Assembly: GCF_036017915.1 (NCBI RefSeq)
Contig: NZ_CP107929.1
Location: 248,001-312,000 of the forward strand
Length of the DNA: 64,000 nucleotides
Source: Micromonospora sp. NBC_00421
GTDB lineage: Bacteria > Actinomycetota > Actinomycetes > Mycobacteriales > Micromonosporaceae
Direction: 5' to 3'
The notes under the pieces were generated by a model. The model did no database searches. It saw only the letters and a program-made list of their open reading frames with translations, and was not told the origin of the DNA. Made by a program: the position numbers and the translations under genes. Below are positions 8,201-52,888 of the stretch, one piece after another (the first letter of the stretch is position 1; every line of letters starts with the position of its first letter).

Positions 8201-8254
8201 GATCAAGAGGTTTGCGTCACGAGACCCGCCGCCGATGACGCGAACCTCTTGGTC
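8201..8254. repeat. Palindromic repeat copy A / bidirectional terminator
   Basis: Left arm GATCAAGAGGTTTGCGTCA (8201-8219) pairs with the right arm at 8236-8254 (TGACGCGAACCTCTTGGTC); the two differences form U-G pairs in RNA on one strand. It lies 12 bases after the hydrolase stop and reaches to within two bases of the convergent kinase stop, so it could end transcription from both sides. Two further copies occur at 9317-9379 and 52781-52840. Confidence 0.8.
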
Positions 8255-8255
8255 A

Positions 8256-9203
8256 TCATGCTGTCTCGGGGTGGGTGAGGCGGTGGGCCAGCCAGGGGAG
8301 GAGGGCGTCGGCCTGGGACTGTTGGAAGGGGCGGACGGTGGGGATGCCGGGCGGCGGCGGGCGGCGGGCGCTGTCGGTGAAGAAGCCGGCCAGGCCAGCG
8401 TAGAAGCCGGTCAGGACGGCGGAGTCGACGTCGGCGGTGCGCGGCGACCGGCGTAGCAGCATCTCGGTGTCGTGCCCGCCGTGCAGCCGTACGTTGACCA
8501 GCAACAGCGCGGTGTCCAGCCAGGCGGGGCCTCGACAGGCCCACGGCCAGTCCACCACGGTGACCCTCCCGTCCGGCCCGATCAGCAGGTTGTCGGCGCG
8601 GACGTCGAGATGGCACAGGGTGTCCCCGGTCAGCGCGGCCAGCCCCCGGTCGGCCGCCGCACAGAGTTCGGTCAGGTGCGTGGCTGCCCACGGGTCGAGC
8701 CGGGGTGGTGGGTCGGCGGCGATCCGCCGCCAGCCGGCGAAGTCGTGGGCCAGCCGCTCGGCGGCGGTCGGTACGTCCGGCACCGGGTTCGGAGTGAGCG
8801 TGGCGGCCAGGGTGTCGAGCGTGTGCAGTACCGGGTCGAGTTCGGCAGCTCGCCAGGGCGTGTGCGGGTGCCGGCCGTCGACGTCGGTGAGGACCAGCGC
8901 CACCCACTCGCCGTCGTCGTGGCAACCGAGCAGCCGGGGCGTCGGGGCGGTCCGGGGCAGGGCGGCGGTGTGCCGGGCTTCGGCGCGGTGCATCCGGGGG
9001 CTGTCCGGGTTCAGTGTCGGGCCGACCGCCTTGACGAACGCCCGCCGGCCGCCGGCCGTACTGACCCGGTCTGCGGTACCGGGGGAGTACCCACCGGGTT
9101 GGGAGACCGCCTCGACCACCCGGTCACCGATGATCTGCTCCACCGCCTGCCGGACGGACCAGGGCAACTCCCCCCAGCCAATCCTGCCCCCACCCCCACC
9201 CAT
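8256..9203 (-). CDS. Aminoglycoside phosphotransferase (APH)-family kinase
   Basis: The protein has the APH/choline-kinase fold signature: a nucleotide-binding N lobe (GGRRAFVKAVGP), catalytic loop CHLDVRADNLLIGPDGR with the HxDxxxxN residues, and metal-binding VDWPWA. It phosphorylates a hydroxyl group of a small molecule; the substrate is not predictable and resistance should not be assumed. The start is uncertain: the DNA before conserved RIGWGELPWSVRQAVEQI is a homopurine G tract that translates as poly-Gly, so ATG 9203 is used, though 9230 or 9302 are open in frame. It converges on the hydrolase and is divergent from the pyruvyl transferase gene. Confidence 0.82.
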   Translation of the reverse strand: MGGGGGRIGWGELPWSVRQAVEQIIGDRVVEAVSQPGGYSPGTADRVSTAGGRRAFVKAVGPTLNPDSPRMHRAEARHTAALPRTAPTPRLLGCHDDGEWVALVLTDVDGRHPHTPWRAAELDPVLHTLDTLAATLTPNPVPDVPTAAERLAHDFAGWRRIAADPPPRLDPWAATHLTELCAAADRGLAALTGDTLCHLDVRADNLLIGPDGRVTVVDWPWACRGPAWLDTALLLVNVRLHGGHDTEMLLRRSPRTADVDSAVLTGFYAGLAGFFTDSARRPPPPGIPTVRPFQQSQADALLPWLAHRLTHPETA

Positions 9204-9262
9204 ACCCCCACCCCCGCCCCCACCGTCCATCCCCCCACCATGCGCGGCCCCCCAACACCAAA
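9170..9262. repeat. C-rich tract (G-rich on the APH sense strand)
   Basis: The + strand is almost unbroken C runs (for example TGCCCCCACCCCCACCCA), so the antisense strand, which is the sense strand of the leftward kinase gene, is G-rich with many runs of three or more G. It spans the 5' end of the kinase gene and mirrors the G tract at 9381-9498. Confidence 0.85.
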
Positions 9263-9316
9263 CAACCGAATTACCCCCACACGCCTCACCCGCCCCTCGC
9301 ATCGAGGTGTATCACT

Positions 9317-9379
9317 CGGTGATCAAGAGATTCAGGTCAGGATCTCGACCCGGCGTGACGCAAACCTCTTGATCACCGG
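9317..9379. repeat. Palindromic repeat copy B
   Basis: Left arm CGGTGATCAAGAGATTCAGG... (9317-9339) and right arm TGACGCAAACCTCTTGATCA... (9356-9379) form an imperfect 23-bp dyad. Unlike copy A it lies between divergently transcribed genes, so it is not a simple gene-end terminator. Confidence 0.78.
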
Positions 9380-9380
9380 A

Positions 9381-9498
9381 CTGGGCTGGGGGTGGGGGAG
9401 GGGGAGGGAGGAGGGGAGGGAGGGCGGGGGTGGGGGTGGGGGTGGGCATGGGTTGGGGATGGGGGGGAATGCGGGCGGGACGGTTTGGGGAGGAGCGC
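9381..9498 (+). repeat. G-rich, quadruplex-prone leader tract
   Basis: About 18 runs of three or more G occur in roughly 110 bases (for example GGGTGGGGGAGGGGGAGGG), ending in the GGGGAGGAG that serves as the ribosome-binding site of the next gene. On the mRNA sense strand this can form one or several G-quadruplexes. Confidence 0.85.
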
Positions 9499-9500
9499 GG

Positions 9501-10649
9501 ATGAGGGGTCCTACCGGCTTGACCATCGGTGTGCTCGGCTCGTACGGGGGGCGGAACCTGGGGGACGAGGCGATCCTCACCGGGCTCCTCGCCGACCTAC
9601 GCGAGCAGGAGCCGAACGCCCGGATCATCGTGTTCTCCCGTAATCCAGCACATACCGCGCTGGCCCACCCGGACGTGGAGGCGGTGCCCTGGGAGGGCGT
9701 CAGCCGGGTCGACTCGTCCGAGGTGCTCGCCCAGCTCGACCTGCTCATCCTCGGCGGCGGCGGCATCCTGTACGACAAGGAGGCCCGCCGTTACCTGCGG
9801 GTCGTCCGGGTGGCCCAGGAACGCGGGCTGCCCCTGCTGACGTACGCGGTGGGTGTGGGGCCGCTCAACGACGGGGTGGACACCGGGATGGTCCGGGAGA
9901 CGCTGGCCGGGGCGACCGAGGTGACCGTCCGGGACCAGGAGTCCCGGATGGCGCTGGAGGAGGCCGGGCTGCTCAACCCGATCACCGTCACCGCCGACCC
10001 GGCGTTCCTGCTGGAGCCGGAGGACTTTCCCGCGCGGCTGCTGCGCGAGGAGGGGGTACCGGCCGGCAAGCGCCTGGTCGGTTTGAGCGTCCGCGAGCCG
10101 GGACGGGCCGCCGAGCGGCTCGACGTCGACGGGTACCACCGGTTGCTCGCCCAGATCGGCGACTTCCTGGTCCAACGGATCGACGCGCACGTGCTCTTCG
10201 TCCCGATGGAACGCGACGACATCCGGCACTCGCACGGGGTGCTGTCCCACATGGTCGCCGCCGACCGGGGACGGATCCTGCACGGCGACTATTCGCCCCG
10301 GCAGGTGCTCGGCCTGATGAGACACTTCGACCTGGCGGTCGGCATGCGGCTGCACTTCCTGATCTTCGCGGCTATGGTCGGCACCCCGTTCCTGCCCCTG
10401 CCGTACGCGGGGAAGGTCTTCGACCTGGCCCAGCGGCTCGGCGTGCCGGCGCTGCGCGGGGTGGAACGCGAGGTGGAGGGTCCGCTGTTGGCGGAGGTCG
10501 ACCGGCTCTGGGACGAACGGGAGTCCCGGCGGGAGGCCACCGCCCGGCGGGTCGCCGAGGTGTGTGAACAGGCCCGGGGCACCTCGCAGGTCACCCGGGC
10601 CGTGCTGGACGGCCTGCGGTCCCGCACCCTGGCCCGGATGGCCGCCTGA
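9501..10649 (+). CDS. Polysaccharide pyruvyl transferase family protein
   Basis: This 382-residue protein begins with the family hallmark IGVLGSYGGRNLGDEAILTG and continues with ILGGGGILYD, YAVGVGPL, VRDQESRMALEEAGL and the C-terminal VGMRLHFLIFAAMVGTPFL/LPYAGKV pattern of the pyruvyl transferase (CsaB/WcaK/AmsJ) superfamily. These cytosolic enzymes transfer pyruvate ketals or phosphorylated groups to cell-wall or exopolysaccharide sugars; the acceptor is unknown. The ATG at 9501 is set by GGGGAGGAG six bases upstream. It stands alone: no glycosyltransferase genes are next to it. The 5' leader is the G tract described separately, which could affect translation. Confidence 0.88.
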   Translation: MRGPTGLTIGVLGSYGGRNLGDEAILTGLLADLREQEPNARIIVFSRNPAHTALAHPDVEAVPWEGVSRVDSSEVLAQLDLLILGGGGILYDKEARRYLRVVRVAQERGLPLLTYAVGVGPLNDGVDTGMVRETLAGATEVTVRDQESRMALEEAGLLNPITVTADPAFLLEPEDFPARLLREEGVPAGKRLVGLSVREPGRAAERLDVDGYHRLLAQIGDFLVQRIDAHVLFVPMERDDIRHSHGVLSHMVAADRGRILHGDYSPRQVLGLMRHFDLAVGMRLHFLIFAAMVGTPFLPLPYAGKVFDLAQRLGVPALRGVEREVEGPLLAEVDRLWDERESRREATARRVAEVCEQARGTSQVTRAVLDGLRSRTLARMAA

Positions 10650-10654
10650 CCGAT

Positions 10655-10701
10655 CTGCGCAGGCCGGGTGGCGTCCGCCCACCTGCGCAGGCCGGGTGGC
10701 G
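10655..10701. repeat. Two 19-bp direct repeats just after a stop codon
   Basis: CTGCGCAGGCCGGGTGGCG occurs at 10655-10673 and 10683-10701 (28-bp period), starting five bases beyond the pyruvyl transferase stop. Function unknown. Confidence 0.7.
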
Positions 10702-10784
10702 CTGGCTCACCTGGTGTGTCGCCGCCGACCCCGACCCGCGCGCCCCTGCGGCGCACGCCCGACCGTCCCGGGACGACGGAGTGG

Positions 10785-10982
10785 TCAGACCGCCGGGCCG
10801 CGCCAGCGGTAGCGCCACGTGTCGCCCGCTGACTCCAGTTCGTAGATCTGGGCGTCGACCAGGCCCTGCGGGCCGAGGTGGTGGTGGGTCAGCGGGGGGC
10901 GCTCGTTGCTGTCCAGCTCGACGTCGACCGCCTCGCCGTCAGCCGGGCCGTCCGTCAGGGGAATCCGTACCGTCGAAGCCAT
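10785..10982 (-). CDS. Small conserved-looking hypothetical protein
   Basis: A 65-residue acidic protein (MASTVRIPLTDGPADGEAVD at the start, ending YRWRGPAV). It has no signal peptide, membrane segment or cysteine. Supported as a gene by an ATG start with AGGAT upstream, GC-rich third positions and the lack of a better frame; a short beta-rich fold is likely. Function is not recognised. It converges on the pyruvyl transferase and is divergent from the DinB-like gene. Confidence 0.65.
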   Translation of the reverse strand: MASTVRIPLTDGPADGEAVDVELDSNERPPLTHHHLGPQGLVDAQIYELESAGDTWRYRWRGPAV

Positions 10983-11066
10983 GCGCCCATCCTGCCAAGC
11001 CGGCCGCCGGACCGCAGGGTTTGGCCGGGACAGCGGGTCGCCACCGGATGCGGCTATCGTCCGGTG

Positions 11067-11588
11067 ATGGCGGAGATCCAGATCGACGTGACGCTAGCTC
11101 CGGTGCTCGCCCGCACCGGTGACGAGCGGGCCGTGCTCGACGCGTTCCTCGACTTCCACCGCGCGATCGTGCTGCGCAAGGCGCGGGGGTTGACCGACGC
11201 CGAGGCGACCCGCCGGCTGGTGCCGTCGGCGACCACCCTGGCCGGCCTCCTGCGGCACCTCACCCTGGTCGAGCGGAACTGGTTCCCCTACCTGCTCGAC
11301 CCGGCCCCCGGCGACGTCTTCCCCACCTCCGAGGAGGACGCGGCGGCCAGCTTCGCCCTGGCCGAGGGGGAGACCCTCGACTCGCTCGCCGATGCCTACG
11401 AGCGGGCCTGTGACCGCTCCCGGGAGTTGGCCGCCCGGTTCCCGCTGGACCATGTCGTCCCGCAACCGCAGCTCGGCGAGGTGTCGTTGCGCTGGATCAT
11501 GGTGCACATGATCGAGGAGACCGCCCGGCACGCCGGCCACGCCGACATCCTCCGTGAGCTGACCGACGGCAGCACCGGCCAGCTCTGA
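11067..11588 (+). CDS. DinB-like (DUF664) family protein
   Basis: A 173-residue four-helix-bundle protein of the DinB/YfiT type, with typical elements ERAVLDAFLDFHRAIVLRKARGL, LAGLLRHLTLVERNWF and the C-terminal WIMVHMIEETARHAGHADIL. The three family metal-ligand histidines are plausible at RHLTLVE, HMIEE and HAGHAD. Related proteins are mycothiol- or bacillithiol-dependent S-transferases, so a thiol-transfer or detoxification role is possible but not shown. An in-frame GTG at 11064 directly precedes the chosen ATG. Confidence 0.85.
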   Translation: MAEIQIDVTLAPVLARTGDERAVLDAFLDFHRAIVLRKARGLTDAEATRRLVPSATTLAGLLRHLTLVERNWFPYLLDPAPGDVFPTSEEDAAASFALAEGETLDSLADAYERACDRSRELAARFPLDHVVPQPQLGEVSLRWIMVHMIEETARHAGHADILRELTDGSTGQL

Positions 11589-11750
11589 CCCGCACCCGGG
11601 GCCGTCGCGGTCGTCGGGCCGGAGGCGGCAGGGCCACTCCGCCCGTCCCATCAGGGCGGGCGACGTCAGTCGGGGCGGGCGGCCATGGCGCCGACGGTAA
11701 CCGGTTACCGCCGCCTATCCTGGCCCCCGGGCGTCGACGAGGGGGAAAAC

Positions 11751-14700
11751 GTGCTGGTCGTCCACGGGGCGTGGCTGGTCGGGACCGGGCTGGCGGTCTG
11801 GGCGGAGGATTCCACCCGGCCGACGCAGGTGCCGCGACGGCCCGGTCGGGCCCCCCGCGAGCGCCCCCACCCCTTCGCCGCCGAACCGGCCGCGCTGTCC
11901 GCGCTGCTCGGCGACCACCCGGCCGGCACCGTGCTGCTCACCCTCCCCACCCGGGCCGGTGCGCCGCTGCACTCCCCGGAGCTGGTCCCGGCCACCGTCG
12001 CGGAACCGGTCCGCGGCCCGGTCACCCTCGCCGGCTGGCGAACCCCCACCCTCCGGTACGCCCCGGACGACGCGCTCGACCTGCTGCGTGCCCTCGACGG
12101 GCTCGATGCCGTGGTCGGGGCCGGCCTGCGCCACCTCGCCGAGTTGGCCGGCTTCGCGGTCGACCTGGTGGCCCGGGGCCGGTTGCTGCCCGGCGTGGCC
12201 GATCGCCCGCCGGGGGACGTACCCCGGTCACCGGCCGGTCGGTCGGCGCGTTCCGCCGGGGCGGCGGTCGGGTGGGCGGTGTGGCGGCCCCTGCTCACCG
12301 GCGCGGACGCCGCCTGGGCCCGGTCGCTGGCCCTCGCCCTGCCCCCGGCCGTCCGGGCCGCCGCCGATGCGGCGACCCCCACCTCCCGTTCCCGCCCCGC
12401 CGCAGGCCGGGCGGCCGGGGTGACCAACGGGAAATCGCCCGGTAGCGGTGCGGTCGAGACCCCCGGTTCGCGGCCCGTCTCCGGTGTGGTCGAGGCTGCC
12501 GTGATGCCGCCCGGTCCCGGTGCCGAGGCGGCGGAGGGTCGGTCCGGTCCCGGTGTCGCCGGGGCCGGTGTGCTGGTCGCCGACGTGCTGGACCTGCTCA
12601 CCGATGCCGCCGCCCGACGGGTGCTGGCCGACACAGACCTGGTCAGGGGCGGCCGACGTGACGGGGCGACGGCCGGCTGGCTGGCGGCGCTGACCGGCCC
12701 GCAACGCCGGTTCACCGCCGAACCCACCGCGCTGGCCACCCTCCGTGCCGAGCTGGACGCCTGGCAGCGCGACGCGGTCGGCGGCCCGGTCCGGGCCAGT
12801 TTCCGGCTGGTCGAGCCGGCCGACGACGAGATCGTCGACGCCCTGACCGTGGTGCCGGCCGACCCGTCGACAGTCGTCGGTCAGGGTGGACGGTGGCGGA
12901 TCGAGTTCGGTCTCCAGGCCGCCGACGAACCGGGCCTGCATGTCGCCGCCTGTGACATCTGGCGGACGCCGGAGCGGCTGCCGGCGCTCGCAGGCCGGTG
13001 GGACGACCCGCAGGAGACCCTGCTGGCCGAGCTGGGCCGGGCCGGGCGGCTCTGGCCGGAGCTGGACCAGGCGCTGCGCACCCCCGCCCCGGAGCAGCTC
13101 GAACTGGACGTCGAGGGGGCCCACCGGTTCCTGCGCGACGGTGCTCCGGTGCTGCACGCCGCCGGCTTCGGGGTGCAGTTGCCGTCCTGGTGGCGGCGGC
13201 CGTCGGCCCGGCTCGGCACCCGGTTGCAGGCCCGCAGCCGCACGGCCCCGGGCACCGTCGCCGCCGCCTCCGGCGGGCTCGGGCTGGACGCGCTCGTCGA
13301 CTACCGCTGGGAGGTGGCGCTCGGTGACGAGACGGTCGACGCCGACGAGCTGGCCGCCCTGGCCGCGTTGAAGACGCCCCTGGTGCGGCTGCGCGGCCGG
13401 TGGGTGGAGCTGGACCCGAAGCGGTTGGCCGCCGGGCTGCGGCTGCTGCGCTCCTCCGGTGAGTTGACAGTCGCCGACCTGCTCAAGATGGGGTTGGGCG
13501 GGGCGGACCGGTCGGACGCGCTGCCGGTGCTGGAGGTGACCGCCGACGGACCGCTCGGTGACCTGCTGGCCGGGCAGGCCGAACGGCGGCTCGTGCCACT
13601 GGACCCGCCGTCCGCCTTCAAGGGCACCCTGCGGCCGTACCAGCGGCGTGGCCTGGCCTGGCTGGCCTTCCTCCAGTCGCTGGGGCTCGGCGGGGTGCTC
13701 GCCGACGACATGGGGCTGGGCAAGACGGTGCAGCTGCTCGCCCTGCTCGCCGGGGACCCACCGGACGCCGGGCCGACCCTGCTGGTCTGTCCGATGTCGC
13801 TGGTCGGCAACTGGCAGCGGGAGGCGGCCCGGTTCACCCCCGGGCTGCGCGTGCACGTGCACCACGGCGCGGACCGGGCCCGGGACGCGGAGTTCGAGGC
13901 GGCGGTGCACGCCGCCGACCTGGTACTCACCACCTATTCGGTGGCCGCCCGGGACGCCGTCGCGCTGGCGTCGGTGGGTTGGCACCGGGTGGTGGTCGAC
14001 GAGGCCCAGGCGATCAAGAACGCGGCCACCCGGCAGGCCGAGGCGATCCGGGGGCTGCCCGCCCGGCACCGGGTCGCCGTCACCGGTACGCCTGTGGAGA
14101 ACCGGCTGGCCGACCTCTGGTCGATCATGCAGTTCGCCAATCCCGGCCTGCTCGGCCCGGCGAGCAGCTTCCGGCAGTCGTACGCGGTGCCGATCGAGCG
14201 GCACGGGGACACCGACGCCGCGGCGCGGCTGCGCCGGATCACCGGTCCGTTCGTGCTGCGCCGGCTCAAGACCGACTCCTCGATCATCTCCGACCTGCCG
14301 GAGAAGCTGGAGATGGAGGTGCTCTGCAACCTCACCGCCGAGCAGGCCTCGCTCTACCGGGCGATCGTCGACGAGATGCTGGCGAAGATCGAGTCCAGCG
14401 ACGGGATGGAACGGCGGGGCCTGGTGCTGGCCACCATGACCCGGCTGAAACAGGTCTGCAACCATCCCGCCCAACTGCTGCGCGACGGCTCGCCGCTGGC
14501 CGGCCGGTCCGGCAAGCTGCAACGGTTGGAGGAGATCGTCGACGAGGTGCTCGCGGCCGACGAGAAGGCCCTCCTGTTCACCCAGTACGCCGAGTTCGGC
14601 GCGCTGCTGCGCGGCCACCTGTCGGCCCGCTTCGGCCGGGAGGTGCTCTATCTGCACGGCGGGGTCGGCAAGGCCGACCGGGACGACCTGGTCACCCGGT

Positions 14701-15047
14701 TCCAGTCCCCGGACGGACCGGCCCTGTTCGTGCTCTCGCTCAAGGCCGGCGGGACCGGGCTCACCCTGACCGCCGCCAACCACGTGGTGCACGTGGACAG
14801 GTGGTGGAACCCGGCGGTGGAGGACCAGGCCACCGACCGGGCGTTCCGGATCGGCCAGCGGCGGCGGGTGCAGGTCCGCAAGTTCGTCTGCGCCGGCACC
14901 GTCGAGGAGAAGGTGGCCGCGATGATCGCCGACAAGCGGGGCCTGGCCGCGTCCGTGGTGGGTAGTGGCGAACAGTGGGTCACCGAGCTGTCCACCGGGC
15001 AGCTGCGGGAGCTGTTCGCGCTGGACGCCGGGGCGGTGGTCGAATGA
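11751..15047 (+). CDS. SNF2-family helicase/ATPase (HelZ type)
   Basis: The 1,098-residue protein is a bacterial SNF2/Rad54-like ATPase. An N-terminal half of uncertain fold contains an SNF2-associated (DUF3670-like) region around residues 400-600. The motor follows: Walker A GVLADDMGLGKTVQLLALL, motif II VVVDEAQAIKN, motif III TGTPVENRL, and the C-terminal helicase lobe (TQYAEFGALL, LSLKAGGTGLTLTAANHV, RAFRIGQRRRVQVRKFV). Such proteins translocate on double-stranded DNA. A stretch of about 70 residues near residue 240-290 is low complexity (Gly/Pro/Ala). GTG 11751 follows AGGGGGAAA; an upstream ATG at 11685 is in frame. It overlaps the SWIM gene by four bases (ATGA), indicating translational coupling. 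Confidence 0.93.
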   Translation: MLVVHGAWLVGTGLAVWAEDSTRPTQVPRRPGRAPRERPHPFAAEPAALSALLGDHPAGTVLLTLPTRAGAPLHSPELVPATVAEPVRGPVTLAGWRTPTLRYAPDDALDLLRALDGLDAVVGAGLRHLAELAGFAVDLVARGRLLPGVADRPPGDVPRSPAGRSARSAGAAVGWAVWRPLLTGADAAWARSLALALPPAVRAAADAATPTSRSRPAAGRAAGVTNGKSPGSGAVETPGSRPVSGVVEAAVMPPGPGAEAAEGRSGPGVAGAGVLVADVLDLLTDAAARRVLADTDLVRGGRRDGATAGWLAALTGPQRRFTAEPTALATLRAELDAWQRDAVGGPVRASFRLVEPADDEIVDALTVVPADPSTVVGQGGRWRIEFGLQAADEPGLHVAACDIWRTPERLPALAGRWDDPQETLLAELGRAGRLWPELDQALRTPAPEQLELDVEGAHRFLRDGAPVLHAAGFGVQLPSWWRRPSARLGTRLQARSRTAPGTVAAASGGLGLDALVDYRWEVALGDETVDADELAALAALKTPLVRLRGRWVELDPKRLAAGLRLLRSSGELTVADLLKMGLGGADRSDALPVLEVTADGPLGDLLAGQAERRLVPLDPPSAFKGTLRPYQRRGLAWLAFLQSLGLGGVLADDMGLGKTVQLLALLAGDPPDAGPTLLVCPMSLVGNWQREAARFTPGLRVHVHHGADRARDAEFEAAVHAADLVLTTYSVAARDAVALASVGWHRVVVDEAQAIKNAATRQAEAIRGLPARHRVAVTGTPVENRLADLWSIMQFANPGLLGPASSFRQSYAVPIERHGDTDAAARLRRITGPFVLRRLKTDSSIISDLPEKLEMEVLCNLTAEQASLYRAIVDEMLAKIESSDGMERRGLVLATMTRLKQVCNHPAQLLRDGSPLAGRSGKLQRLEEIVDEVLAADEKALLFTQYAEFGALLRGHLSARFGREVLYLHGGVGKADRDDLVTRFQSPDGPALFVLSLKAGGTGLTLTAANHVVHVDRWWNPAVEDQATDRAFRIGQRRRVQVRKFVCAGTVEEKVAAMIADKRGLAASVVGSGEQWVTELSTGQLRELFALDAGAVVE

Positions 15048-31687: not shown

Positions 31688-31760
31688 CTGTAGAGCTGAT
31701 GACGTTAGCGATTCACGATCTTCCAGGCCGGCTGAATCGCTAACGTCTTCAGCTCTACAG
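31688..31760. repeat. 28-bp inverted repeat (long hairpin)
   Basis: The left arm 31688-31715 (CTGTAGAGCTGATGACGTTA...) and right arm 31733-31760 are complementary with one mismatch around a 17-base loop. It is lower in GC than its surroundings, more than 500 bases from either neighbouring gene end, and could be a mobile palindromic element or an RNA hairpin. Confidence 0.88.
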
Positions 31761-45484: not shown

Positions 45485-45643
45485 GAGCGAACCCTAGCGG
45501 CTTTCGCCGATCCCCGGTCAACCCGTTTCGGCCTGCCAACCCGGACACCTGTCCGCCGGGCCCGGGTGCGGCAGTTCCGACAGCGGTCCGGTGGGCGGTG
45601 GCGGCTCCTCCGGGGAGGAGGCACCGCCACCGCGCCACCCGAC

Positions 45644-46489
45644 TCAGAACGTGTGCTCGGTGGCGGGGAAGTCGCCGCCGCGTACCTCGTCGGCGAACCG
45701 GCGGGTCGCCTCGGTCAGCGCCCCGGCCAGGTCGGCGTAGCGCTTGACGAACCGGGGGGCCTTTCCGGTGCGCAGCCCTGCCATGTCCTGCCAGACCAGC
45801 ACCTGGGCGTCGGTGTCCGGGCCCGCGCCGATGCCGACGGTGGGGATCGTCAGTTCGGCGGTGACCCGCTTGGCCACCTCGCCCGGCACCATCTCCAGCA
45901 CCACCGCGAACGCCCCCGCCCCGGCCACCGCCCGCGCGTCGGCGAGCACCTCGTCGGCGGTGTCGCCGCGCCCCTGCACCCGGTAGCCGCCCAGGGTGTG
46001 CTCGCTCTGCGGGGTGAACCCGATGTGCGCCATCACCGGGATGCCCGCACCGGTGATCGCCGCGATCTGGTCGGCGCAGCGCCGGCCGCCCTCCAGCTTC
46101 ACCGCGTGGCAGCCGCCCTCCTTCATGAACCGCACCGCCGTGCGCAGCGCCTGGGTCGGCCCCTCCTCGTACGAGCCGAACGGCAGGTCGCCGACGACCA
46201 GGGTGTGCCGGGTCGCCCGGACCACGGCGCGGACCAGCGGCAACAACTCGTCGACTGTCACCGGCAGGGTGGTCTCGTAACCGAACACGTTGTTCGCCGC
46301 CGAGTCGCCGACCAGCAGCGCCGGGATCCCCGCCTGGTCGAAGATCGCGGCGGTGTACTGGTCGTACGAGGTGAGCATCGCCCACCGGTCGCCGCGCTCC
46401 TTGGCGGCGATCAGGTCACGGGTGCGGACCCGGCGGGTGGCCGGCCCGCCGTACAGGGCGGTCACCTCGGTCGGGGTGGACTCCACCAT
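45644..46489 (-). CDS. panB: 3-methyl-2-oxobutanoate hydroxymethyltransferase
   Basis: PanB makes ketopantoate from 2-oxoisovalerate and methylene-THF, the first step of pantothenate and coenzyme A synthesis. The 281-residue protein has canonical motifs: [88 protein letters not shown] and [20 protein letters not shown]. The ATG at 46489 has AAGGAGA upstream and starts conserved sequence. It is followed by nadE on the same strand, 160 bases away. Confidence 0.95.
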
Positions 46490-46651
46490 GGCTGTCTCCT
46501 TTCCTCGAGGCCGCTGTCGCGGTCCCCGGGCTCCGTCGCGATCGTCGCACCACACGACCTGTCGACGGCAGGGAACAGTGCAGGATGTCACTCCGTCGGG
46601 ACGGCACCCGGCCGCCCCGGAGGTCGGGCGCCGCCCCGACGGGTCGGGTGC

Positions 46652-48412
46652 TCAGCCGTCCTCGCGCCACCGGTTGGTGATCGGCAGGCGGCGGTCCCGG
46701 CCGAACGCCTTCATCGAGATCTTGGTGCCGGGCGCGGACTGCCGACGCTTGTACTCGGCGGTGTCCACCAGCCGCAGCACCTTGTCGACCACCGCCGGGT
46801 CGTGACCGGACTCCACCAGACCGGCCCGGCCCAGGTCACCGTCGACGTAGCCGATCAGGATCGGGTCCAGCACGTCGTAGTCGGGCAGGTTGTCGCTGTC
46901 GAGCTGGCCGGGGCTCAACTCGGCCGACGGGGGCTTGCCGATGGAGTTCTCCGGGATCGGCGGGGTCTCACCCCGCCGGGCCGCATCGGCGTTGCGCCAC
47001 TTCGCCAGCCGCCAGACCAGCGTCTTCCAGACGTCCTTGACCGGGTTGAAGCCGCCGACCGAGTCGCCGTAGAGGGTCGAGTAGCCGACCGCCAGCTCGC
47101 TCTTGTTGCCGGTGGTGAGGACCAGATGGCCCTCCTGGTTGGACAGTGCCATCAGGATCACCCCGCGGACCCGGGCCTGGAGGTTCTCCACCGCCACCCC
47201 GGACAGCGAGATGTTCGCCAGGAAGGTGTCCACCATCGGCTGGATCGGCTCGACCCGGTAGTCCAGGCCGGTCCGCTTGGCGAGGTCCTCGGCGTCGGCC
47301 CGGGAGTGCTCCGAGGAGTGCTGGCTGGGCAGCGAGACGCCGACCACCCGCTGCGGCCCGAGCGCGTCGACCGCCAGCACGGCCACCACCGCCGAGTCGA
47401 TCCCGCCGGACAGGCCCAGCACCACCGAGGGGAACCGGTTCTTGTCGACGTAGTCGCGCAGGCCCAGCACCAGCGCGTGCCACACCTCGGCCTCGTCGGC
47501 GACCGGCGCCAGCAGACCGCCGTCGGCCGCCGGCCCGGTCGGTGCCGCCGGAATCCCCTCGACGGTACGACGTACCACCCGCATCCCGTCGGCGAGGTCC
47601 TCGGTGTCGGCGGCGTGCGGGCCCGCCCCGGCCAGCTCCACGTCGTGCACCAGCAGGTGCTCGACGAACTGCGGCGCGCGGGTGAGCAGGTCCCCGTCGG
47701 CCGTGACGATCATCGAGTCGCCCTCGAAGACCAGCTCGTCCTGGCCGCCGACCATGTTGACGTACGCGATCGGGGCACCGGCCTCGACGGCCCGGCGGCG
47801 CACCAGCGGCAACCGGACGTCGTCCTTGTTCAACTCGTACGGCGAGCCGTTGATGTTGACCACCAGGCCGACACCCGCCTGCCGGGCCACCGCGAACGGG
47901 CCGCCGGCCTGCCACAGGTCCTCGCAGATGGTAAGCGCCACGTCCACCCCGCCGACCCGGACCACGGTCAGGGTGTCCCCGGGCACGAAGTAGCGGTCCT
48001 CGTCGAAGACGCCGTAGTTGGGCAGGTGGTGCTTGAAGTAGTGGGCCACCACCTCGCCCCGGTGCAGCAGCGCGGCGGCGTTGCGGGCCCCCCGACCCGG
48101 CCGGGCGTCCCCGCTGACCTGGGGCGGACCGTCGGCGTCCAGGTAGCCGACCACGGCCGGCAGGTCGCCGAGGCCGTCGGCGGCCAGGTCGGCGGCGAGC
48201 CGGCGCAGCGCGGCCTGCGAGGCGGCGACGAAGGAACGGCGGAAGACCAGGTCCTCGACCGGGTAGCCGGTGAGCACCATCTCCGGGAACGCGACGAGCT
48301 GGGCACCGGCGTCGGCGGCCCGACGGGTCCAGGCGCGGATCAGCTCGGCGTTGCCGGCCGTGTCGCCGACGGTCGGGTTGACCTGGCACAGGGCCAGACG
48401 CAGGGTGGGCAT
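46652..48412 (-). CDS. nadE: Glutamine-dependent NAD+ synthetase
   Basis: The 586-residue enzyme amidates nicotinic acid adenine dinucleotide to NAD+. The N-terminal nitrilase-like glutaminase domain has the Glu/Lys/Cys triad regions (VAFPEMVLTGYP, YFKHHLPNYGVFDE, ALTICEDLWQAGGP). The C-terminal synthetase domain begins near residue 275 with the PP-loop motif VVLGLSGGIDSAVVAVLAVD and contains TTGNKSELAVGYSTLYGDSVGGFNP. ATG 48412 starts conserved MPTLRLALCQVNPTVGD. Divergent from glnA2. Confidence 0.95.
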   Translation of the reverse strand: MPTLRLALCQVNPTVGDTAGNAELIRAWTRRAADAGAQLVAFPEMVLTGYPVEDLVFRRSFVAASQAALRRLAADLAADGLGDLPAVVGYLDADGPPQVSGDARPGRGARNAAALLHRGEVVAHYFKHHLPNYGVFDEDRYFVPGDTLTVVRVGGVDVALTICEDLWQAGGPFAVARQAGVGLVVNINGSPYELNKDDVRLPLVRRRAVEAGAPIAYVNMVGGQDELVFEGDSMIVTADGDLLTRAPQFVEHLLVHDVELAGAGPHAADTEDLADGMRVVRRTVEGIPAAPTGPAADGGLLAPVADEAEVWHALVLGLRDYVDKNRFPSVVLGLSGGIDSAVVAVLAVDALGPQRVVGVSLPSQHSSEHSRADAEDLAKRTGLDYRVEPIQPMVDTFLANISLSGVAVENLQARVRGVILMALSNQEGHLVLTTGNKSELAVGYSTLYGDSVGGFNPVKDVWKTLVWRLAKWRNADAARRGETPPIPENSIGKPPSAELSPGQLDSDNLPDYDVLDPILIGYVDGDLGRAGLVESGHDPAVVDKVLRLVDTAEYKRRQSAPGTKISMKAFGRDRRLPITNRWREDG

Positions 48413-48659
48413 GCCCTCATCTTGCCCCAGCGGCTGCCGGTCAATCAGGCCGCTCCGACGAGACGACGGCCACCCTTTTCCGGTCCCCGGCCGGCCGGGT
48501 GCGGGTGGCGGGGCCGTCCGCTGATCCGTCGGTCGGGACACCGCAGGACGAGCGGCAGCAGGTCGCGTAACGTCTGCTTAACCAGGCCGGGGAAGACTGG
48601 GCGGTCAGGACGGATCGGCCGCCCGGTGCCGGACGTACGTCGCGCGAGGGGTTGGGGAA

Positions 48660-50009
48660 GTGGACCGTCAGCAGGAGTTCGTCCTCCGTACGCTGGAAGA
48701 GCGGGACATCCGTTTCGTCCGGCTGTGGTTCACCGACGTGCTGGGCACGCTCAAGAGCGTCTCGGTCGCTCCGGCGGAGCTGGAGGCCGCCTTCGAGGAG
48801 GGCATCGGGTTCGACGGCTCGGCCATCGAGGGCTTCGCCCGGGTCTTCGAGTCCGACATGGTCGCCATGCCGGACCCGACCACCTTCCAGGTCTTCCCGT
48901 TCGAGGGTGGAGTCAGCGGCGAGAGTGCCCGGATGTTCTGCGACATCCTGCTGCCCGACGGCGGCCCGTCCTGGGCCGACCCGCGGCACGTGCTGCGCCG
49001 GATGCTGTCCAAGGCGGCCGAGAAGGGCTTCACCTTCTACACCCACCCCGAGATCGAGTTCTTCCTGCTGGAGAACGGCCCGCAGGACGGCTCGGTGCCG
49101 ACCGCCGTGGACACCGGCGGTTACTTCGAGCACACCACGCACGCGGTGGCGCGGGACTTCCGCCGCCAGGCCGTGCTGGCGCTGGAGCGGATCGGCATCT
49201 CGGTCGAGTTCAGCCACCACGAGGTCGCCCCCGGCCAGCAGGAGATCGACCTGCGGTACGCCGACGCGCTGACCACCGCCGACAACATCATGACCTTCCG
49301 GCACGTGGTCAAGGAGGTGGCGCTCTCCACGGGGGTGCAGGCCAGCTTCATGCCGAAGCCCTTCACCGACCAGCCGGGCAGCGGCATGCACACCCACCTG
49401 TCGCTGTTCGAGGGGGAGCGCAACGCGTTCCACGACTCCGGCGACCCGATGAAGCTGTCGAAGGTGGCCAAGTCGTTCATCGCCGGTCTGCTGATGCACG
49501 CCCGGGAATACACCGCGGTCACCAACCAGTGGGTCAACTCGTACAAGCGGCTGTTCCCGCAGGCGTTGCCGGACCGGATCACCGAGAGCCCGGCGTACGT
49601 CTGCTGGGGGCACCTGAACCGGTCCGCGCTGGTCCGCGTCCCCGCGTACGGCAAGCCGAACTCGGCCCGGGTGGAGGTCCGCTCGCTGGACTCGGCGACC
49701 AACCCCTACCTGGCGTTCGCGGTGATGCTCGGCGCCGGCCTGAAGGGCATCGAGGAGGGCTACGAGCTGCCGCCCGGCGCGGAGGACGACGTCTGGTCGC
49801 TGACCAGCGCCGAGCGCCGCGCGATGGGCTACGAGGCGCTGCCGGAGAACCTGTCCGAGGCGATCGACGTGATGGCCGGCTCGGAACTGGTCGCCGAGGT
49901 GCTCGGCGAGCACGTCTTCGACTTCTTCCTGCGCAACAAGCGGGCCGAGTGGGAGCAGTACCGCCGCGAGGTCACCCCGTACGAGCGGCAGCGTTACCTG
50001 TCGCTGTAA
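48660..50009 (+). CDS. glnA: Glutamine synthetase type I, GlnA2-like
   Basis: The 449-residue protein has the complete GS core: FTDVLGTLKSVSV, GFDGSAIEGFARV, HPEIEFFLLENG, HHEVAPGQQEIDL, FMPKPFTDQPGSGMHTHLSL and KPNSARVEVRSLDSATNPYL. It is closest in style to M. tuberculosis GlnA2. Where the adenylylation site of GlnA1 has NLYDLP, this protein reads DDVWSL, so the target tyrosine is replaced and control by GlnE is unlikely. It starts with GTG at 48660, divergent from nadE; glnE is 4.7 kb downstream. Confidence 0.94.
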   Translation: MDRQQEFVLRTLEERDIRFVRLWFTDVLGTLKSVSVAPAELEAAFEEGIGFDGSAIEGFARVFESDMVAMPDPTTFQVFPFEGGVSGESARMFCDILLPDGGPSWADPRHVLRRMLSKAAEKGFTFYTHPEIEFFLLENGPQDGSVPTAVDTGGYFEHTTHAVARDFRRQAVLALERIGISVEFSHHEVAPGQQEIDLRYADALTTADNIMTFRHVVKEVALSTGVQASFMPKPFTDQPGSGMHTHLSLFEGERNAFHDSGDPMKLSKVAKSFIAGLLMHAREYTAVTNQWVNSYKRLFPQALPDRITESPAYVCWGHLNRSALVRVPAYGKPNSARVEVRSLDSATNPYLAFAVMLGAGLKGIEEGYELPPGAEDDVWSLTSAERRAMGYEALPENLSEAIDVMAGSELVAEVLGEHVFDFFLRNKRAEWEQYRREVTPYERQRYLSL

Positions 50010-50219
50010 CCCGCCGCACCCGCCGCCCCGGGGCCGGGGCCGTTCGGACCCGGGGCCCCGGCGGCTCGGATCCGGCGAGGCCGGGCCGTCGGGGCCCCGG
50101 ATCTGCCGATGGTCCGGGCTCCGGCCTGGCCGGGGGGTATCGGGGGTGGCGCGGTGCCGCTATCGTCTCGATCACCGTGCCGGCAGCCGTGCCGGGCGCA
50201 GGAGGTCGGGAGGCCGTCG

Positions 50220-50645
50220 GTGCTGGAGGATCTGCTCACCGGAGCATGGCAGAGCGTCGTGTTCGGTGTCGTCGGGGTGGCGCTGATGGCGGCCGGCTTC
50301 GTGCTGGTCGACCTGCTCACCCCGGGCAAGCTGCGCGAGCTGATCTGGGTACGCCGCAACGGCAACGCCGGGCTGCTGCTGGCCGCCAACCAGCTCGGTG
50401 TCGCCGGCATCGTGTTCACCGCGATCGTGACCAGCTACGACGACTTCGCCAAGGGGCTCGCCTCGACGGTGGTCTTCGGGTTGATCGGGCTGGCCGTCAT
50501 GGCGCTGGCCTTCGGCGTCCTGGACCTGCTCACCCCGGGCCGGCTCGGCGAGGTGATCTGCGCGGACGAGCCGCACCCGGCGGCCCGGGTCAGCGCCGCC
50601 ACCCACTTCGGCGCGGCCCTGATCGTCTGCGCCTGCATCGCCTGA
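50220..50645 (+). CDS. DUF350 membrane protein
   Basis: A 141-residue membrane protein with four helices arranged as an internal duplication: VGVALMAAGFVLVDLLTPGKLRELIW and IGLAVMALAFGVLDLLTPGRLGEVIC. DUF350 proteins (UPF0719-like) are conserved, of unknown function, often linked to spermidine synthase-like or membrane stress genes. The GTG is preceded by GGAGG at a distance of about 13 bases with an AGG nearer. It follows glnA2 in the same direction after a GC-rich hairpin-prone spacer. Confidence 0.82.
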   Translation: MLEDLLTGAWQSVVFGVVGVALMAAGFVLVDLLTPGKLRELIWVRRNGNAGLLLAANQLGVAGIVFTAIVTSYDDFAKGLASTVVFGLIGLAVMALAFGVLDLLTPGRLGEVICADEPHPAARVSAATHFGAALIVCACIA

Positions 50646-50795
50646 CCCTGCGGCCACACGCCTGCACCGCCTGAATCCGGCCCGTGGCCTGCGCCGTCCC
50701 GCTGGGGGCGGTCCGGGTGACGGGCCGGCTGCGTCCGCGTCCGGCCCCACCTGTCGACCGGCCGGTTCGTCGTACCCCCGTCGTAGTGTGCGGGG

Positions 50796-51488
50796 GTGAA
50801 CCGGACGGATCGTCTCTATGCCCTGGTGGAGGAGCTGCGGGCGGTGTCACCCCGGCCGCGCAGCGCCCGCTGGCTGGCCGCCCGCTTCGAGGTGAGCACC
50901 CGCACCGTCGAACGGGACATCATCGCCCTCCAGGGCACCGGCGTGCCGATCTGGGCCGAGCCCGGCCGCACCGGCGGTTACGTGGTGGACCGGTCGCACA
51001 CCCTGCCACCGGTCAACCTGACCGCCGCCGAGGCGGTGGCGATGGCGGTGGCCCTGCACGGGCTCGCCGGCACCCCGTTCGCCGTGGCGGGCGGCACCGC
51101 GCTGCGCAAACTGCTGGCGGTGCTGCCGGCCGCCGACGCCGCCGACGCACGCCTGCTCGCCGGCCGGGTGCTGCTGGTCGGCACCGGGCCGACCACCTCC
51201 GTCCCGGCTGTCGTCGCCGACGCGGTCTCCGCCCGCCGGGTGCTCCGCCTGCGGTACGCCGACCGCTGCGGTGTGGTCTCGTCGCGTGAGGTCGAGCCGT
51301 TGGGCTACCTGGGCAACAGCCGGCACTGGTACCTGCTGGCCTGGTGCCGGCTCCGCGACGGGCTGCGCTGCTTCCGTACCGACCGGATCTGCGGGGTGGA
51401 GGCGTTGCCGGAGCGGGTGACCCGGGAGTTCTCCCCGACCGAGCTGGATGTCCCGCCCGAGCGGGTGCGCCGACTGACCCTGGTGTGA
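50796..51488 (+). CDS. WYL-domain HTH transcriptional regulator (YafY type)
   Basis: The 230-residue protein has an HTH_11 winged helix (RSARWLAARFEVSTRTVERDI, ALQGTGVPIWAEPGRTGGYVVD) and a WYL domain (RVLRLRYADRCG, REVEPLGYLGNSRHWYLLAWCRLRDGLRCFRTDRI) that in related proteins binds nucleic acid or small ligands. The GTG start is supported by conserved NRTDRLYALVEELR. It precedes a VOC-family gene in the same direction, which is a plausible target. Confidence 0.88.
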   Translation: MNRTDRLYALVEELRAVSPRPRSARWLAARFEVSTRTVERDIIALQGTGVPIWAEPGRTGGYVVDRSHTLPPVNLTAAEAVAMAVALHGLAGTPFAVAGGTALRKLLAVLPAADAADARLLAGRVLLVGTGPTTSVPAVVADAVSARRVLRLRYADRCGVVSSREVEPLGYLGNSRHWYLLAWCRLRDGLRCFRTDRICGVEALPERVTREFSPTELDVPPERVRRLTLV

Positions 51489-51712
51489 GCAGCCGACCCG
51501 GGTGCGAGGAGTGAGTCCCGGGGCGGATCGCCCGGCGTCGTCATGCCGACCGTCAGGAGCGACACCCGTCGGCCTGGTGCCCGGCCGGAGTCCGGTGCCG
51601 ACGACGGGCCGGCTCTTTCCGTAAACACCGACAGGACGCTGTCGCGGACGCCCGGGAGGCTGGCTCCCGAACCCACCGGCCGCCCGGCCGGCAGGGGAAC
51701 AGGAGGCGACGC

Positions 51713-52087
51713 GTGACCAGCACACCCATCACCTGGTTCGAGATCGGCACCGACCGGCCGGACGAGGTGCAAGGCTTCTACGCGGAGTTGTTCGGCTGGA
51801 CCTTCGTCGAGGAGGGTACGGCCGAGGGTGGTTCCTACCGGACGACCGGCGCGGGACAGCCGGCGGGCATCGGCGGAGGCATCCGGGCCATCGCCGAGGG
51901 CGCCCCCGGCTACGCGATCCTCTACGCCGAGGTGACCGACGTGACGCAGACGTGCCGCCGGGCCGAGACGGCGGGCGGCACGGTGCTGACGCCGCCCCGG
52001 ACCACGCCGGGCGGGTTGACCCTCGCCCTGCTGCGTGACCCGTCGGGCAACCACCTCGGTGTCTTCTCCCCGGCGGGCACCGCCTGA
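51713..52087 (+). CDS. VOC (glyoxalase/bleomycin-resistance fold) protein
   Basis: A 124-residue VOC-superfamily protein: TWFEIGTDRPDEVQGFYAELFGWTFVEE, EGAPGYAILYAEVTDVTQTCRRAETAGG, GLTLALLRDPSGNHLGVFS. VOC metalloenzymes or binding proteins act on many small molecules; no substrate can be named. GTG 51713 follows AGGAGGCG. It lies 225 bases downstream of the WYL regulator and ends at a very strong hairpin. Confidence 0.85.
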   Translation: MTSTPITWFEIGTDRPDEVQGFYAELFGWTFVEEGTAEGGSYRTTGAGQPAGIGGGIRAIAEGAPGYAILYAEVTDVTQTCRRAETAGGTVLTPPRTTPGGLTLALLRDPSGNHLGVFSPAGTA

Positions 52088-52093
52088 TGCAAG

Positions 52094-52142
52094 GGGCCGA
52101 AGTTGCGGTGTCCCGGTGCATCGGACACCGCAACTTCGGCCC
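52094..52142. terminator. Perfect 20-bp hairpin between convergent genes
   Basis: GGGCCGAAGTTGCGGTGTCC (52094-52113) and its exact complement (52123-52142) enclose a 9-base loop, seven bases after the VOC stop. It would terminate rightward transcription and, being symmetric, leftward transcription too. Confidence 0.88.
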
Positions 52143-52154
52143 ATCTGCGTTGAT

Positions 52155-52184
52155 CTTCGGCCCGCCGGGTCGGGCGGGCCGAAG
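52155..52184. terminator. Second hairpin sharing the CTTCGGCCC motif
   Basis: CTTCGGCCCGCC (52155-52166) pairs exactly with GGCGGGCCGAAG (52173-52184). It begins 13 bases after the larger hairpin and ends six bases before the stop of the leftward secreted-protein gene. Confidence 0.8.
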
Positions 52185-52189
52185 GTGGG

Positions 52190-52666
52190 TCACCTGCCGG
52201 GCGTACCCGCCGGGCCGTCGTGGTGGCCTCGGCCACCCGGACCCGGGAAGACGCCGGCCTCGACGGCCTTGGTGATCGCGTCGGCCTGCTCCTGGGTGAG
52301 CTTGCCGTCCTTGACCGCCTGGGCCAGCCGCTCGGTCAGCTTCGCCTGCCGGTCCTCGGCCGACGGGCGCTCCGGCCGGTCACCCTTGACCTGGTCCTTG
52401 TGCTGCGCGCGCACCTTCTCCAGGGCGGCGGTCACCTTGTCGGTGTCCACGCCCAGCTCCGTGGCCAGCGCCTCGGCGAACTCGTTCTGCCGGTCGGCGC
52501 GCTGCTGCTGCCGGTCGGTGCCCTGGTCGGCCGCACTGCTGACGCTCGGCGTCGGGGTGGAGCCACTCTCGGCGAAGGCCACCGTGGGAGCGGCGATCCC
52601 CACCCCGAGCACACCGGCGGCGGCAAGGCCGACCAGCACCTGCTTCTTCGACATGGTGCGGGACAT
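52190..52666 (-). CDS. Small secreted protein with charged helical body
   Basis: A 158-residue protein with a Sec signal (KKQVLVGLAAAGVLGVGIAA...AFA), then a charged helical region (FAEALATELGVDTDKVTAAL, LTERLAQAVKDGKLTQEQADAI) resembling secreted proteins with repeated Lx(2)G(K/V)LTQEQAD helices, and a His/Gly-rich tail. No cysteines are present. ATG 52666 has GGAGG at a good distance. Function is unknown; metal or surface binding through the GGRGHHDG tail is conceivable only. Confidence 0.82.
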   Translation of the reverse strand: MSRTMSKKQVLVGLAAAGVLGVGIAAPTVAFAESGSTPTPSVSSAADQGTDRQQQRADRQNEFAEALATELGVDTDKVTAALEKVRAQHKDQVKGDRPERPSAEDRQAKLTERLAQAVKDGKLTQEQADAITKAVEAGVFPGPGGRGHHDGPAGTPGR

Positions 52667-52780
52667 CGTTCCTCCAGTACGTCGGTGGTGATGCGTTGAC
52701 GTCACCGACAGTGACCGCCGAACCTGAGAACCCCCCGTCCCGACCCTGTCCCCAAGCTGAAAATCCGCCCCGCCGGCCCC

Positions 52781-52840
52781 GGTGATCAAGAGGTTTCGGC
52801 CAGGAATGCGCTTTCCATCCCCGCAAACCTCTTGATCACC
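52781..52840. repeat. Palindromic repeat copy C
   Basis: GGTGATCAAGAGGTTT (52781-52796) and AAACCTCTTGATCACC (52825-52840) are exact complements around a 28-base loop. It lies between two leftward genes, upstream of the secreted-protein gene. Same core as copies A (8201-8254) and B (9317-9379). Confidence 0.88.
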
Positions 52841-52888
52841 CGGGCGGGACGGGGCGGGGCGGGGGCGCGGGGGGGTGGGGGTGGGGGG
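52841..52888 (+). repeat. G-rich tract beside palindrome copy C
   Basis: Directly right of the palindrome the + strand is almost only G runs (GGGGCGGGGCGGGGGCGCGG, then GGGGTGGGGGTGGGG) up to the carboxypeptidase stop codon. The sequence left of the palindrome is C-rich, as at copies A and B. Confidence 0.85.

What the first reader, a model, noticed from the sequence alone, without database searches (positions are those of the whole stretch)
8201..52888. Family of GATCAAGAGGTTT palindromes flanked by opposite C and G tracts
Three dyads with the same core (8201-8254, 9317-9379, 52781-52840) occur in this window. At each one the + strand is C-rich to the left and G-rich to the right, most extreme at copies B and C, so reading outward from the palindrome the strand is always G-rich. 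The skew extends into neighbouring coding ends: the poly-Gly N-terminus of the kinase, the Pro/Leu-rich end of the hydrolase, and the carboxypeptidase 3' end. Copy A is between convergent genes, B between divergent genes, C between co-directional genes, so a simple terminator role does not explain the set. It may be a new repeat family that acts as an R-loop, replication or recombination signal, or whose flanks evolve by biased repair.
Basis: partly seen in the sequence, partly recalled or inferred. Interest (0 to 1): 0.72.

Follow-up and report, generated by a model that had tools for sequence, protein, structure and literature searches.

The report
Palindromes that skew neighbouring DNA bases
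A family of about 54-base palindromes scattered through Micromonospora and related genomes is flanked on both sides by DNA that is lopsided in G and C, even inside a gene, which points to an unknown DNA process that starts at each palindrome and works outward.

Summary
Confirmed and widened. The three dyads belong to a 54-56 bp palindrome family: 94 dyads in this genome (reversed control 0), and a superfamily in 120 of 300 Micromonosporaceae genomes. The C-left/G-right switch holds at 64 of 65 sampled clusters, contrast 1.12 against 0.06-0.09 in dyad-free intergenic controls. It fades over about 200 nt, is as strong beside genes transcribed away from the dyad as toward it, is absent on average at 126 other hairpins, and is more than halved where relatives show no dyad. 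In two species a dyad lies in frame inside ada-alkA; in one, four-fold codon sites flip from C:G 42:3 to 2:34 across it.

Dyads sit at gene 3' ends like terminators, but termination does not explain the skew. Substitutions favour G/T on the outward strand with little extra divergence, and dyad centres invert between species. Best reading: DNA processing at the dyad, with outward repair tracts resolved by a strand-asymmetric bias. The break and conversion steps are inferred. Not REP/RAYT. No printed description found.

The parts
8201..8254 (.). dyad A, 54 bp, between convergent genes (alpha/beta hydrolase + and APH-family phosphotransferase -)
8101..8200 (+). C-rich left flank of A (skew -0.72), covering the 3' end of the hydrolase gene
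8255..8354 (+). G-rich right flank of A (skew +0.50), the 3' end of the phosphotransferase gene on the - strand
9321..9374 (.). dyad B, 54 bp (arms extend to 9317-9378), between divergent genes; a dyad is also found in the matching locus of G036 (L212, skew -0.51/+0.67)
9221..9320 (+). C-rich left flank of B (skew -0.58)
9375..9474 (+). G-rich right flank of B (skew +0.86), upstream of a polysaccharide pyruvyl transferase-family gene
52784..52837 (.). dyad C, 54 bp with perfect 13-bp arms, between two genes on the - strand; a dyad lies at the same place in L090 (M. cabrerizensis) and L100 (M. noduli)
52684..52783 (+). C-rich left flank of C (skew -0.23)
52838..52937 (+). G-rich right flank of C (skew +0.68), running into the 3' end of a peptidase S66 (LD-carboxypeptidase family) gene

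Best explanation
The dyads are 54-56 bp palindromic elements of Micromonosporaceae that settle, or survive, mainly at gene 3' ends. I think each is a place where DNA is repeatedly opened or cut (cruciform or hairpin cleavage, or a break by a protein that reads the arms), after which repair tracts run outward about 150-250 nt on both sides. At mismatched sites in those tracts the outcome favours G or T on the outward strand (C or A on the strand whose 3' end points at the dyad). Over time this builds a C-rich left and a G-rich right flank in intergenic and coding DNA alike. A candidate cause is the actinobacterial mismatch endonuclease NucS, which prefers G-G, G-T and T-T mismatches: if the invading strand is the one with its 3' end at the dyad, removal of those mismatches favours the classes seen. 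Shown: the family, its placement, that the skew goes with the dyad, independence from transcription direction, the substitution asymmetry, and inversion of dyad centres between species. Inferred: the break or cruciform, the repair tract, conversion between chromosome copies, and NucS.
For: Skew centred on the dyad and fading over about 200 nt in intergenic and coding DNA. Equal on sides transcribed toward (95.50 .66 .54 .31) and away (35.53 .60 .49 .35), and in other species (164 and 48 sides). In-frame intragenic dyads with codon flips: four-fold C:G 42:3 before and 2:34 after in L073, 30:15 and 6:32 in L048. Orthologous sites: aligned-flank skew -0.42/+0.36 with a dyad (19), -0.15/+0.16 without one by the pattern used (70). 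Within 150 nt, dyad genome against relatives classed as dyad-free: C>G 484:140, C>T 249:58, A>G 90:54, but A>T 17:15 and G>T 78:64; log2 shifts against distal sites 1.69, 1.66, 1.29, 0.11, 0.16 (37 loci). Between dyad-bearing pairs third-position C>G is about 2.6 times and G>C about 0.5 times the distal rate (my arithmetic, 508 sites), as expected of a fixation bias. Central 16 nt inverted in 20 of 153 orthologous pairs, about 3% expected. Near-identical, probably young copies in G180 have almost no skew (6 copies). NucS found in 6 of 6 genomes tested; its mismatch preference in PMC8228993 (passage).
Against: No break, cruciform or conversion was observed. Centre inversions could come from replication template switching, and the 20 pairs fall by eye in about eight loci. 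Left and right skew of a site are not correlated (rho 0.17, n = 51) nor is skew with arm mismatches. C>A against A>C also leans, 26:13 (shift 0.69, interval -0.29 to 1.76), which a strict G/T against C/A rule does not predict. On away sides coding counts are few and mixed: C>G 33:14, C>T 15:3, but A>G 13:21. Dyad-dyad pairs also show a weaker bias (C>G 104:67, C>T 73:34). The gene 3'-end niche and the exclusion of other hairpins at convergent genes are not explained by this mechanism alone. In G180 even the nine non-identical copies have weak skew. NucS is general in actinobacteria, so its presence says little.
Confidence: 0.42

Rival explanations
1. Two-way transcription terminator or insulator: hairpin plus unstructured C/A-rich transcript on approach from either side (perhaps Rho-assisted), with both flanks selected because sense and antisense transcripts must stop.
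For: Dyads sit at gene 3' ends with the same convergent > co-directional > divergent gradient as other hairpins, and convergent intergenic regions with a dyad rarely hold another strong hairpin (4 of 31 against 45 of 104, p 0.0025). The inward transcript is C-rich and G-poor and folds less than the outward one (-13.8 against -25.4 kcal/mol).
Against: Sides without inward gene transcription are equally skewed. Two dyads lie in frame inside a gene with full skew. Other hairpins have no skew. Inward RNA is no less structured than shuffles of its own composition (mean z -0.02). Exclusion of other hairpins is not significant at co-directional genes (2 of 26 against 49 of 360, p 0.55).
Confidence: 0.2
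2. Selection on DNA: the G-rich outward strands are themselves a signal or structure (for example flanking G-quadruplex-prone tracts around a protein site), kept by selection on both sides.
For: G4-like motifs on the outward strand right of 54 of 65 and left of 56 of 65 clusters, inward orientation 0 of 130; a G>C change is accepted at about half the distal rate (arithmetic).
Against: Selection on four-fold sites up to about 200 nt away, against codon choice, inside ada-alkA is hard to justify; flank sequences turn over freely between species while keeping only composition; young G180 copies lack them.
Confidence: 0.2
3. Pure mutation pressure: the outward strand is exposed (R-loop, flap, or leading-strand-like synthesis starting at the dyad) and its cytosines are lost to G and T.
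For: C>G and C>T on the outward strand both rise. The polarity and G+T excess resemble the skew switch at a replication origin (recalled), on a 200-nt scale.
Against: Divergence is only slightly higher near the dyad (third-position identity 0.765 and 0.740 against 0.772 far away), and the reverse change G>C falls to about half instead of staying constant (arithmetic; small counts, stationarity assumed).
Confidence: 0.15

Closest known systems
REP/BIME repetitive extragenic palindromes with RAYT transposases
   Same: short palindromes, about 100 copies per genome, intergenic, depleted between divergent genes, doublets
   Different: no Y1 (RAYT) transposase gene in the dyad-rich genomes tested; fixed 54-56 bp; flanking skew field, which I know from no REP family (recalled)
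MITE-like non-autonomous elements
   Same: inverted arms, patchy presence (G180 61 copies, five others of its genus 0), near-identical copies in G180 with shared flanking sequence
   Different: no autonomous partner or target duplication was looked for beyond the pattern searches; many sites are shared by species
Bidirectional intrinsic terminators (recalled)
   Same: hairpin-forming palindrome at convergent and co-directional gene ends
   Different: no A/T tracts; C and G tracts instead; skew independent of transcription; found in frame inside a gene
GC-biased gene conversion at recombination hotspots (recalled)
   Same: local fixation bias around a point, reaching synonymous sites
   Different: bias is between C and G (strand-asymmetric, sign change at the centre), not AT against GC; palindrome-centred; recombination not shown here
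GC-skew switch at replication origins and at CpG-island promoters (recalled)
   Same: C-rich left and G-rich right on one strand, T over A on the G side
   Different: about 200-nt scale, about 100 sites per genome, centred on a palindrome, independent of gene direction

Membership tests
REP/RAYT | high-copy short extragenic palindrome | tested here: met
   94 dyads; 65 of 65 sampled clusters intergenic
REP/RAYT | Y1-type (PF01797) RAYT gene in the genome | tested here: not met
   0 in G000, G036, G011, G115, G048, G149, G140, G059, G321, G180, G159, G196, G215, G227, G240; found in 2 of 26 genomes, G099 (0 dyads) and G006 (2 dyads)
MITE | related autonomous transposon with the same terminal repeats | tested here: inconclusive
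   4 lone arms among 61 stretches, 3 of them beside a dyad and one in a degenerate dyad; the rest of the genome was not read
MITE | target-site duplication | not tested
   no exact empty/occupied pair was examined for it
Intrinsic terminator, bidirectional | hairpin at gene 3' ends | tested here: met
   32 convergent, 31 co-directional, 2 divergent clusters
Intrinsic terminator, bidirectional | T tract after and A tract before the hairpin | tested here: not met
   outward flank is G 0.61-0.66 and T 0.07-0.12 within 3-60 nt
Rho-dependent terminator | C-rich, G-poor RNA before the end point | tested here: met
   toward sides, outward G skew 0.31-0.66, i.e. C-rich inward RNA
Rho-dependent terminator | that bias confined to the transcribed approach | tested here: not met
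   away sides equal; intragenic dyads
Biased gene conversion | favoured change up and reverse change down at synonymous sites | tested here: met
   about 2.6x and 0.5x at third positions in dyad-dyad pairs (arithmetic; 508 sites)
Biased gene conversion | recombination or heteroduplex at the site | not testable with these tools
   only indirect: centre inversions
Rfam RNA family | match to a described structured RNA | tested here: not met
   0 matches up to E = 1 in window 8000-9700, which holds A and B; C not searched

The most novel reading that the evidence does not exclude
The dyads are micro-origins of repair synthesis: a sequence-specific machine opens or cuts a 54-bp palindrome at about 100 places per genome, synthesis or conversion runs outward about 200 nt on both sides, and a strand-asymmetric correction bias rewrites the neighbourhood, codons included, while the palindrome centre flips. 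This would be an undescribed palindrome-centred, strand-asymmetric conversion system of actinobacteria.
Probability: 0.35. Interest if true: 0.92.

Novelty: new variant of a known kind. Interest (0 to 1): 0.8.

Why it matters
About 100 short sites per genome carry a symmetric, strand-specific base-composition field that ignores gene direction and overrides codon choice. If it comes from biased repair, it offers natural, replicated test sites for how mismatch repair without MutS (NucS) and recombination shape bacterial genomes. If it comes from selection, there is an unknown DNA signal at gene ends across a family of antibiotic producers. Either way, base skew and codon bias near gene ends in these genomes should not be read as translation or replication signals before dyads are masked.

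Tried and rejected
Chance: rejected (reversed-pattern controls 0). Generic effect of hairpins or gene ends: rejected (126 other hairpins average -0.02/+0.03; dyad-free intergenic controls 0.06-0.09; coding ends without a dyad nearby 0.03 and -0.03). Insertion into already skewed sites: disfavoured, because orthologous sites without a dyad are much less skewed. REP/RAYT: rejected for lack of the transposase. Selection for unstructured RNA beyond composition: no sign. Skew predicted by arm perfection, or shared in size by the two sides: no. Cross-pairing inside doublets: weak (41 of 64 across, 30 of 64 within). My note of 18 of 18 shared sites in G036 was a miscount: one search shows 17 of 17.

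Literature: letters of the core and variants gave 5 and 35 papers (15 of the 35 listed); none of the titles shown concerns this. Concept searches showed nothing on it in their capped lists. I read passages of PMC11109978 and PMC8228993; all other papers were seen as listings with abstract starts. The library lacks most subscription papers. Statements on REP, MITE, terminators, hotspots, origins and CpG islands are recalled.

Limits: genes were called by my own codon-score script. 49 of 61 own stretches were chosen because they hold dyads. The 353 comparisons come from a dyad-selected pool, so 343 sharing a dyad is biased. In one search, 13 of 60 relatives' stretches were anchored on one side only and dropped; 47 were counted. 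In one search all 120 stretches were used, 89 classed dyad-free and 31 with a dyad; 4 of the 89 are G036 sites and others may hide variants (the four relatives at locus L182 are skewed although classed without). Relatives count separately, so the 37 loci are the units. In one search, 89 of 120 were kept. In one search, 56 of 122 proteins could be parsed.
Full report
WHAT WAS CLAIMED AND WHAT IS THERE. The three dyads are real. The window is bases 248001-312000 of a single 7.23-Mb contig. The core with up to one mismatch occurs 98 + 104 times and the dyad with up to three mismatches 94 times; the reversed pattern never. I took 60 stretches of 20 kb (49 around known copies, 11 blind) plus the window. 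They hold 81 dyads, spacing 28 in 77 and 29 in 4, in 65 clusters (51 single, 12 double, 2 triple); none of the clusters lies in the 11 blind stretches. 9 of 16 neighbouring pairs in clusters have an 83-bp period.

WHERE THEY SIT. With my own gene caller, 32 clusters are between convergent, 31 between co-directional and 2 between divergent genes, none inside a gene. Against intergenic regions of 60 bp or more, convergent sites are enriched (p 5e-9) and divergent ones depleted (p 2e-7). Convergent regions with a dyad rarely have another strong hairpin (4 of 31 against 45 of 104, p 0.0025); for co-directional ones the difference is not significant (2 of 26 against 49 of 360, p 0.55). So dyads occupy a terminator-like niche.

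THE SKEW. On the + strand 64 of 65 clusters are C-rich left and G-rich right; the contrast over 100 nt is 1.12, against 0.06-0.09 in 395 dyad-free intergenic controls. On the outward strand G is 0.61-0.66 and C 0.14-0.20 from 3 to 60 nt, both 0.36-0.38 by 250-400 nt, and T exceeds A from 20 to 300 nt. The decay runs through coding 3' ends too. Other named species show it at 110 of 113 exact dyads. A scan for strong switches found 59 sites of this polarity, 50 at dyad clusters, and 3 of the opposite polarity, none at dyads. Of the other 9, one is a degenerate dyad and three carry a GATCATGGAGTT variant palindrome. 126 other strong hairpins average no skew.

NOT TRANSCRIPTION. Sides whose gene runs toward the dyad (95) and away from it (35) have the same skew, here and in other species (164 and 48 sides); coding parts on away sides are positive in 7 of 7 here and 21 of 23 elsewhere. 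The strongest case is intragenic. Of three dyads flagged inside genes in other species, one (L140) only overlaps a gene end. The other two, in M. gifhornensis (L073) and M. zingiberis (L048), lie in frame inside an ada-alkA fusion gene, between two blocks that align to solved 3-methyladenine glycosylase chains. In L073 four-fold sites are C:G 42:3 in the 60 codons before and 2:34 in the 60 after the dyad, mixed again beyond about 80 codons; L048 gives 30:15 and 6:32. Of 56 parsed proteins, 5 (three species: M. gifhornensis, M. maris, M. zingiberis) encode this form and 27 more carry a related D[QH]E[VL] piece; DNA was seen for two only. Selection for termination should not do this within one translated message.

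THE SKEW GOES WITH THE DYAD BETWEEN SPECIES. Over seven relatives, orthologous sites with a dyad have aligned-flank skew -0.42/+0.36 (19 sites, 18 with both signs), those without -0.15/+0.16 (70 sites, 48 with both signs). Relatives classed dyad-free keep some third-position skew (0.43 within 100 nt against 0.66 here); I read this as traces of lost dyads or missed variants. G036 (probably M. matsumotoense: its 870,808-base contig has the length of NZ_FMCU01000001.1) had a dyad at all 17 sites anchored on both sides. For window copy B, dyads lie in the matching loci of G036, G048, G011 and G115, and none was found by the same pattern in 25 loci of other relatives.

SUBSTITUTION PATTERN. In coding DNA within 150 nt, relatives classed dyad-free against this genome, outward strand: C>G 484:140, C>T 249:58, A>G 90:54, A>T 17:15, G>T 78:64, C>A 26:13. 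At 500-1800 nt: 4502:4214, 1643:1215, 1077:1588, 180:172, 709:650, 613:503. Log2 shifts with locus bootstrap: 1.69 [1.28, 2.17], 1.66 [0.92, 2.51], 1.29 [0.73, 2.04], 0.11, 0.16, 0.69 [-0.29, 1.76] (37 loci). Divergence rises only slightly. On away sides counts are few: C>G 33:14, C>T 15:3, A>G 13:21. Dyad-dyad pairs show a weaker bias, C>G 104:67 and C>T 73:34. For those pairs my arithmetic (508 third-position sites, stationarity assumed) puts C>G at about 2.6 times and G>C at about 0.5 times the distal rate, which fits a fixation bias (scaled strength about 1.6) better than extra mutation. A bias for G or T over C or A on the outward strand, neutral within each class, is what removal of G-G, G-T and T-T mismatches carried by the other strand would give. 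NucS prefers those mismatches (PMC8228993, passage) and is encoded in 6 of 6 genomes tested. That step is inference.

THE DYAD ITSELF. The pattern GATCAWGRRGTT-N20..40-AACYYCWTGATC occurs in 120 of 300 Micromonosporaceae genomes: 102 of 106 same-genus and 18 of 194 others, in 11 of 44 genera, reversed control 0. Arms differ by species (G215 mostly TAGCGAC/GTCGCTA among the copies listed). Both flanks have the expected sign at 10 of 13 sites in G020, 9 of 11 in G227 and 15 of 16 in genera g10 and g31. In G180, 6 near-identical copies average -0.16/-0.03 and 9 others -0.22/+0.11, and several near-identical copies share flanking sequence: recent spread before the field builds up is my reading. 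The central 16 nt are direct in 53, inverted in 20 and unrelated in 80 of 153 orthologous pairs, about 3% each expected; one pair is a 16 of 16 inversion (L156 8149 and L263). No Y1 transposase gene accompanies the family in the dyad-rich genomes tested.

CONCLUSION. The dyad is a REP-like or MITE-like palindrome in a terminator-like niche; the skew field is a dyad-centred DNA effect independent of transcription direction. I favour outward repair tracts with a strand-asymmetric outcome bias (0.42). Two-way termination (0.2), a selected DNA signal (0.2) and mutation pressure (0.15) remain.

Noticed in passing
L073 7169-7222; L048 2964-3017: Dyads in frame inside an ada-alkA (DNA-3-methyladenine glycosylase 2) gene; 27 of 56 parsed homologs carry a related peptide piece in a linker of variable length.
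   Followed up: partly
L195 5661 and 16476; L199 16496: GATCATGGAGTTGTGG palindromes with the same C/G switch, while near-identical 72-82 bp copies with CGATCATGGAGT arms at L173 9085, L174 16464, L188 8870, L191 17637 and L199 1877 have little skew.
   Followed up: no
window 31688-31760; L192 1666-1759; L156 1273-1346: Another repeated palindrome (GGAGCTGATGACGT or similar arms of 28-34 nt) between convergent genes, without the C/G switch.
   Followed up: no
L152 3515; L207 4654: TTTGCTCTGCTGC / GCAGAGCAAAG palindromes at two C/G switch sites; a related 12-mer is in 5 places, 4 with both signs.
   Followed up: no
L171, L174, L178, L180, L182, L186, L198: Dyad doublets at 83-bp period with a 29-bp linker; the units of L171 and L174 look like one 137-bp unit in opposite orientation (by eye).
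   Followed up: partly
L156 11828; L158 8652; L190 9961: A single dyad arm duplicated in tandem beside a dyad.
   Followed up: no
G180 (genus g31): 61 dyads in one genome while five others of its genus in the sample have none; near-identical copies suggest recent spread.
   Followed up: partly
G042, G073, G099, G114: Four same-genus genomes without the superfamily dyad; three are small (5.1-5.6 Mb), possibly the Salinispora branch (guess); G099 has 7 Y1 transposase genes.
   Followed up: no
window 31265: A C/G switch without a dyad, beside C-rich tandem repeats.
   Followed up: no
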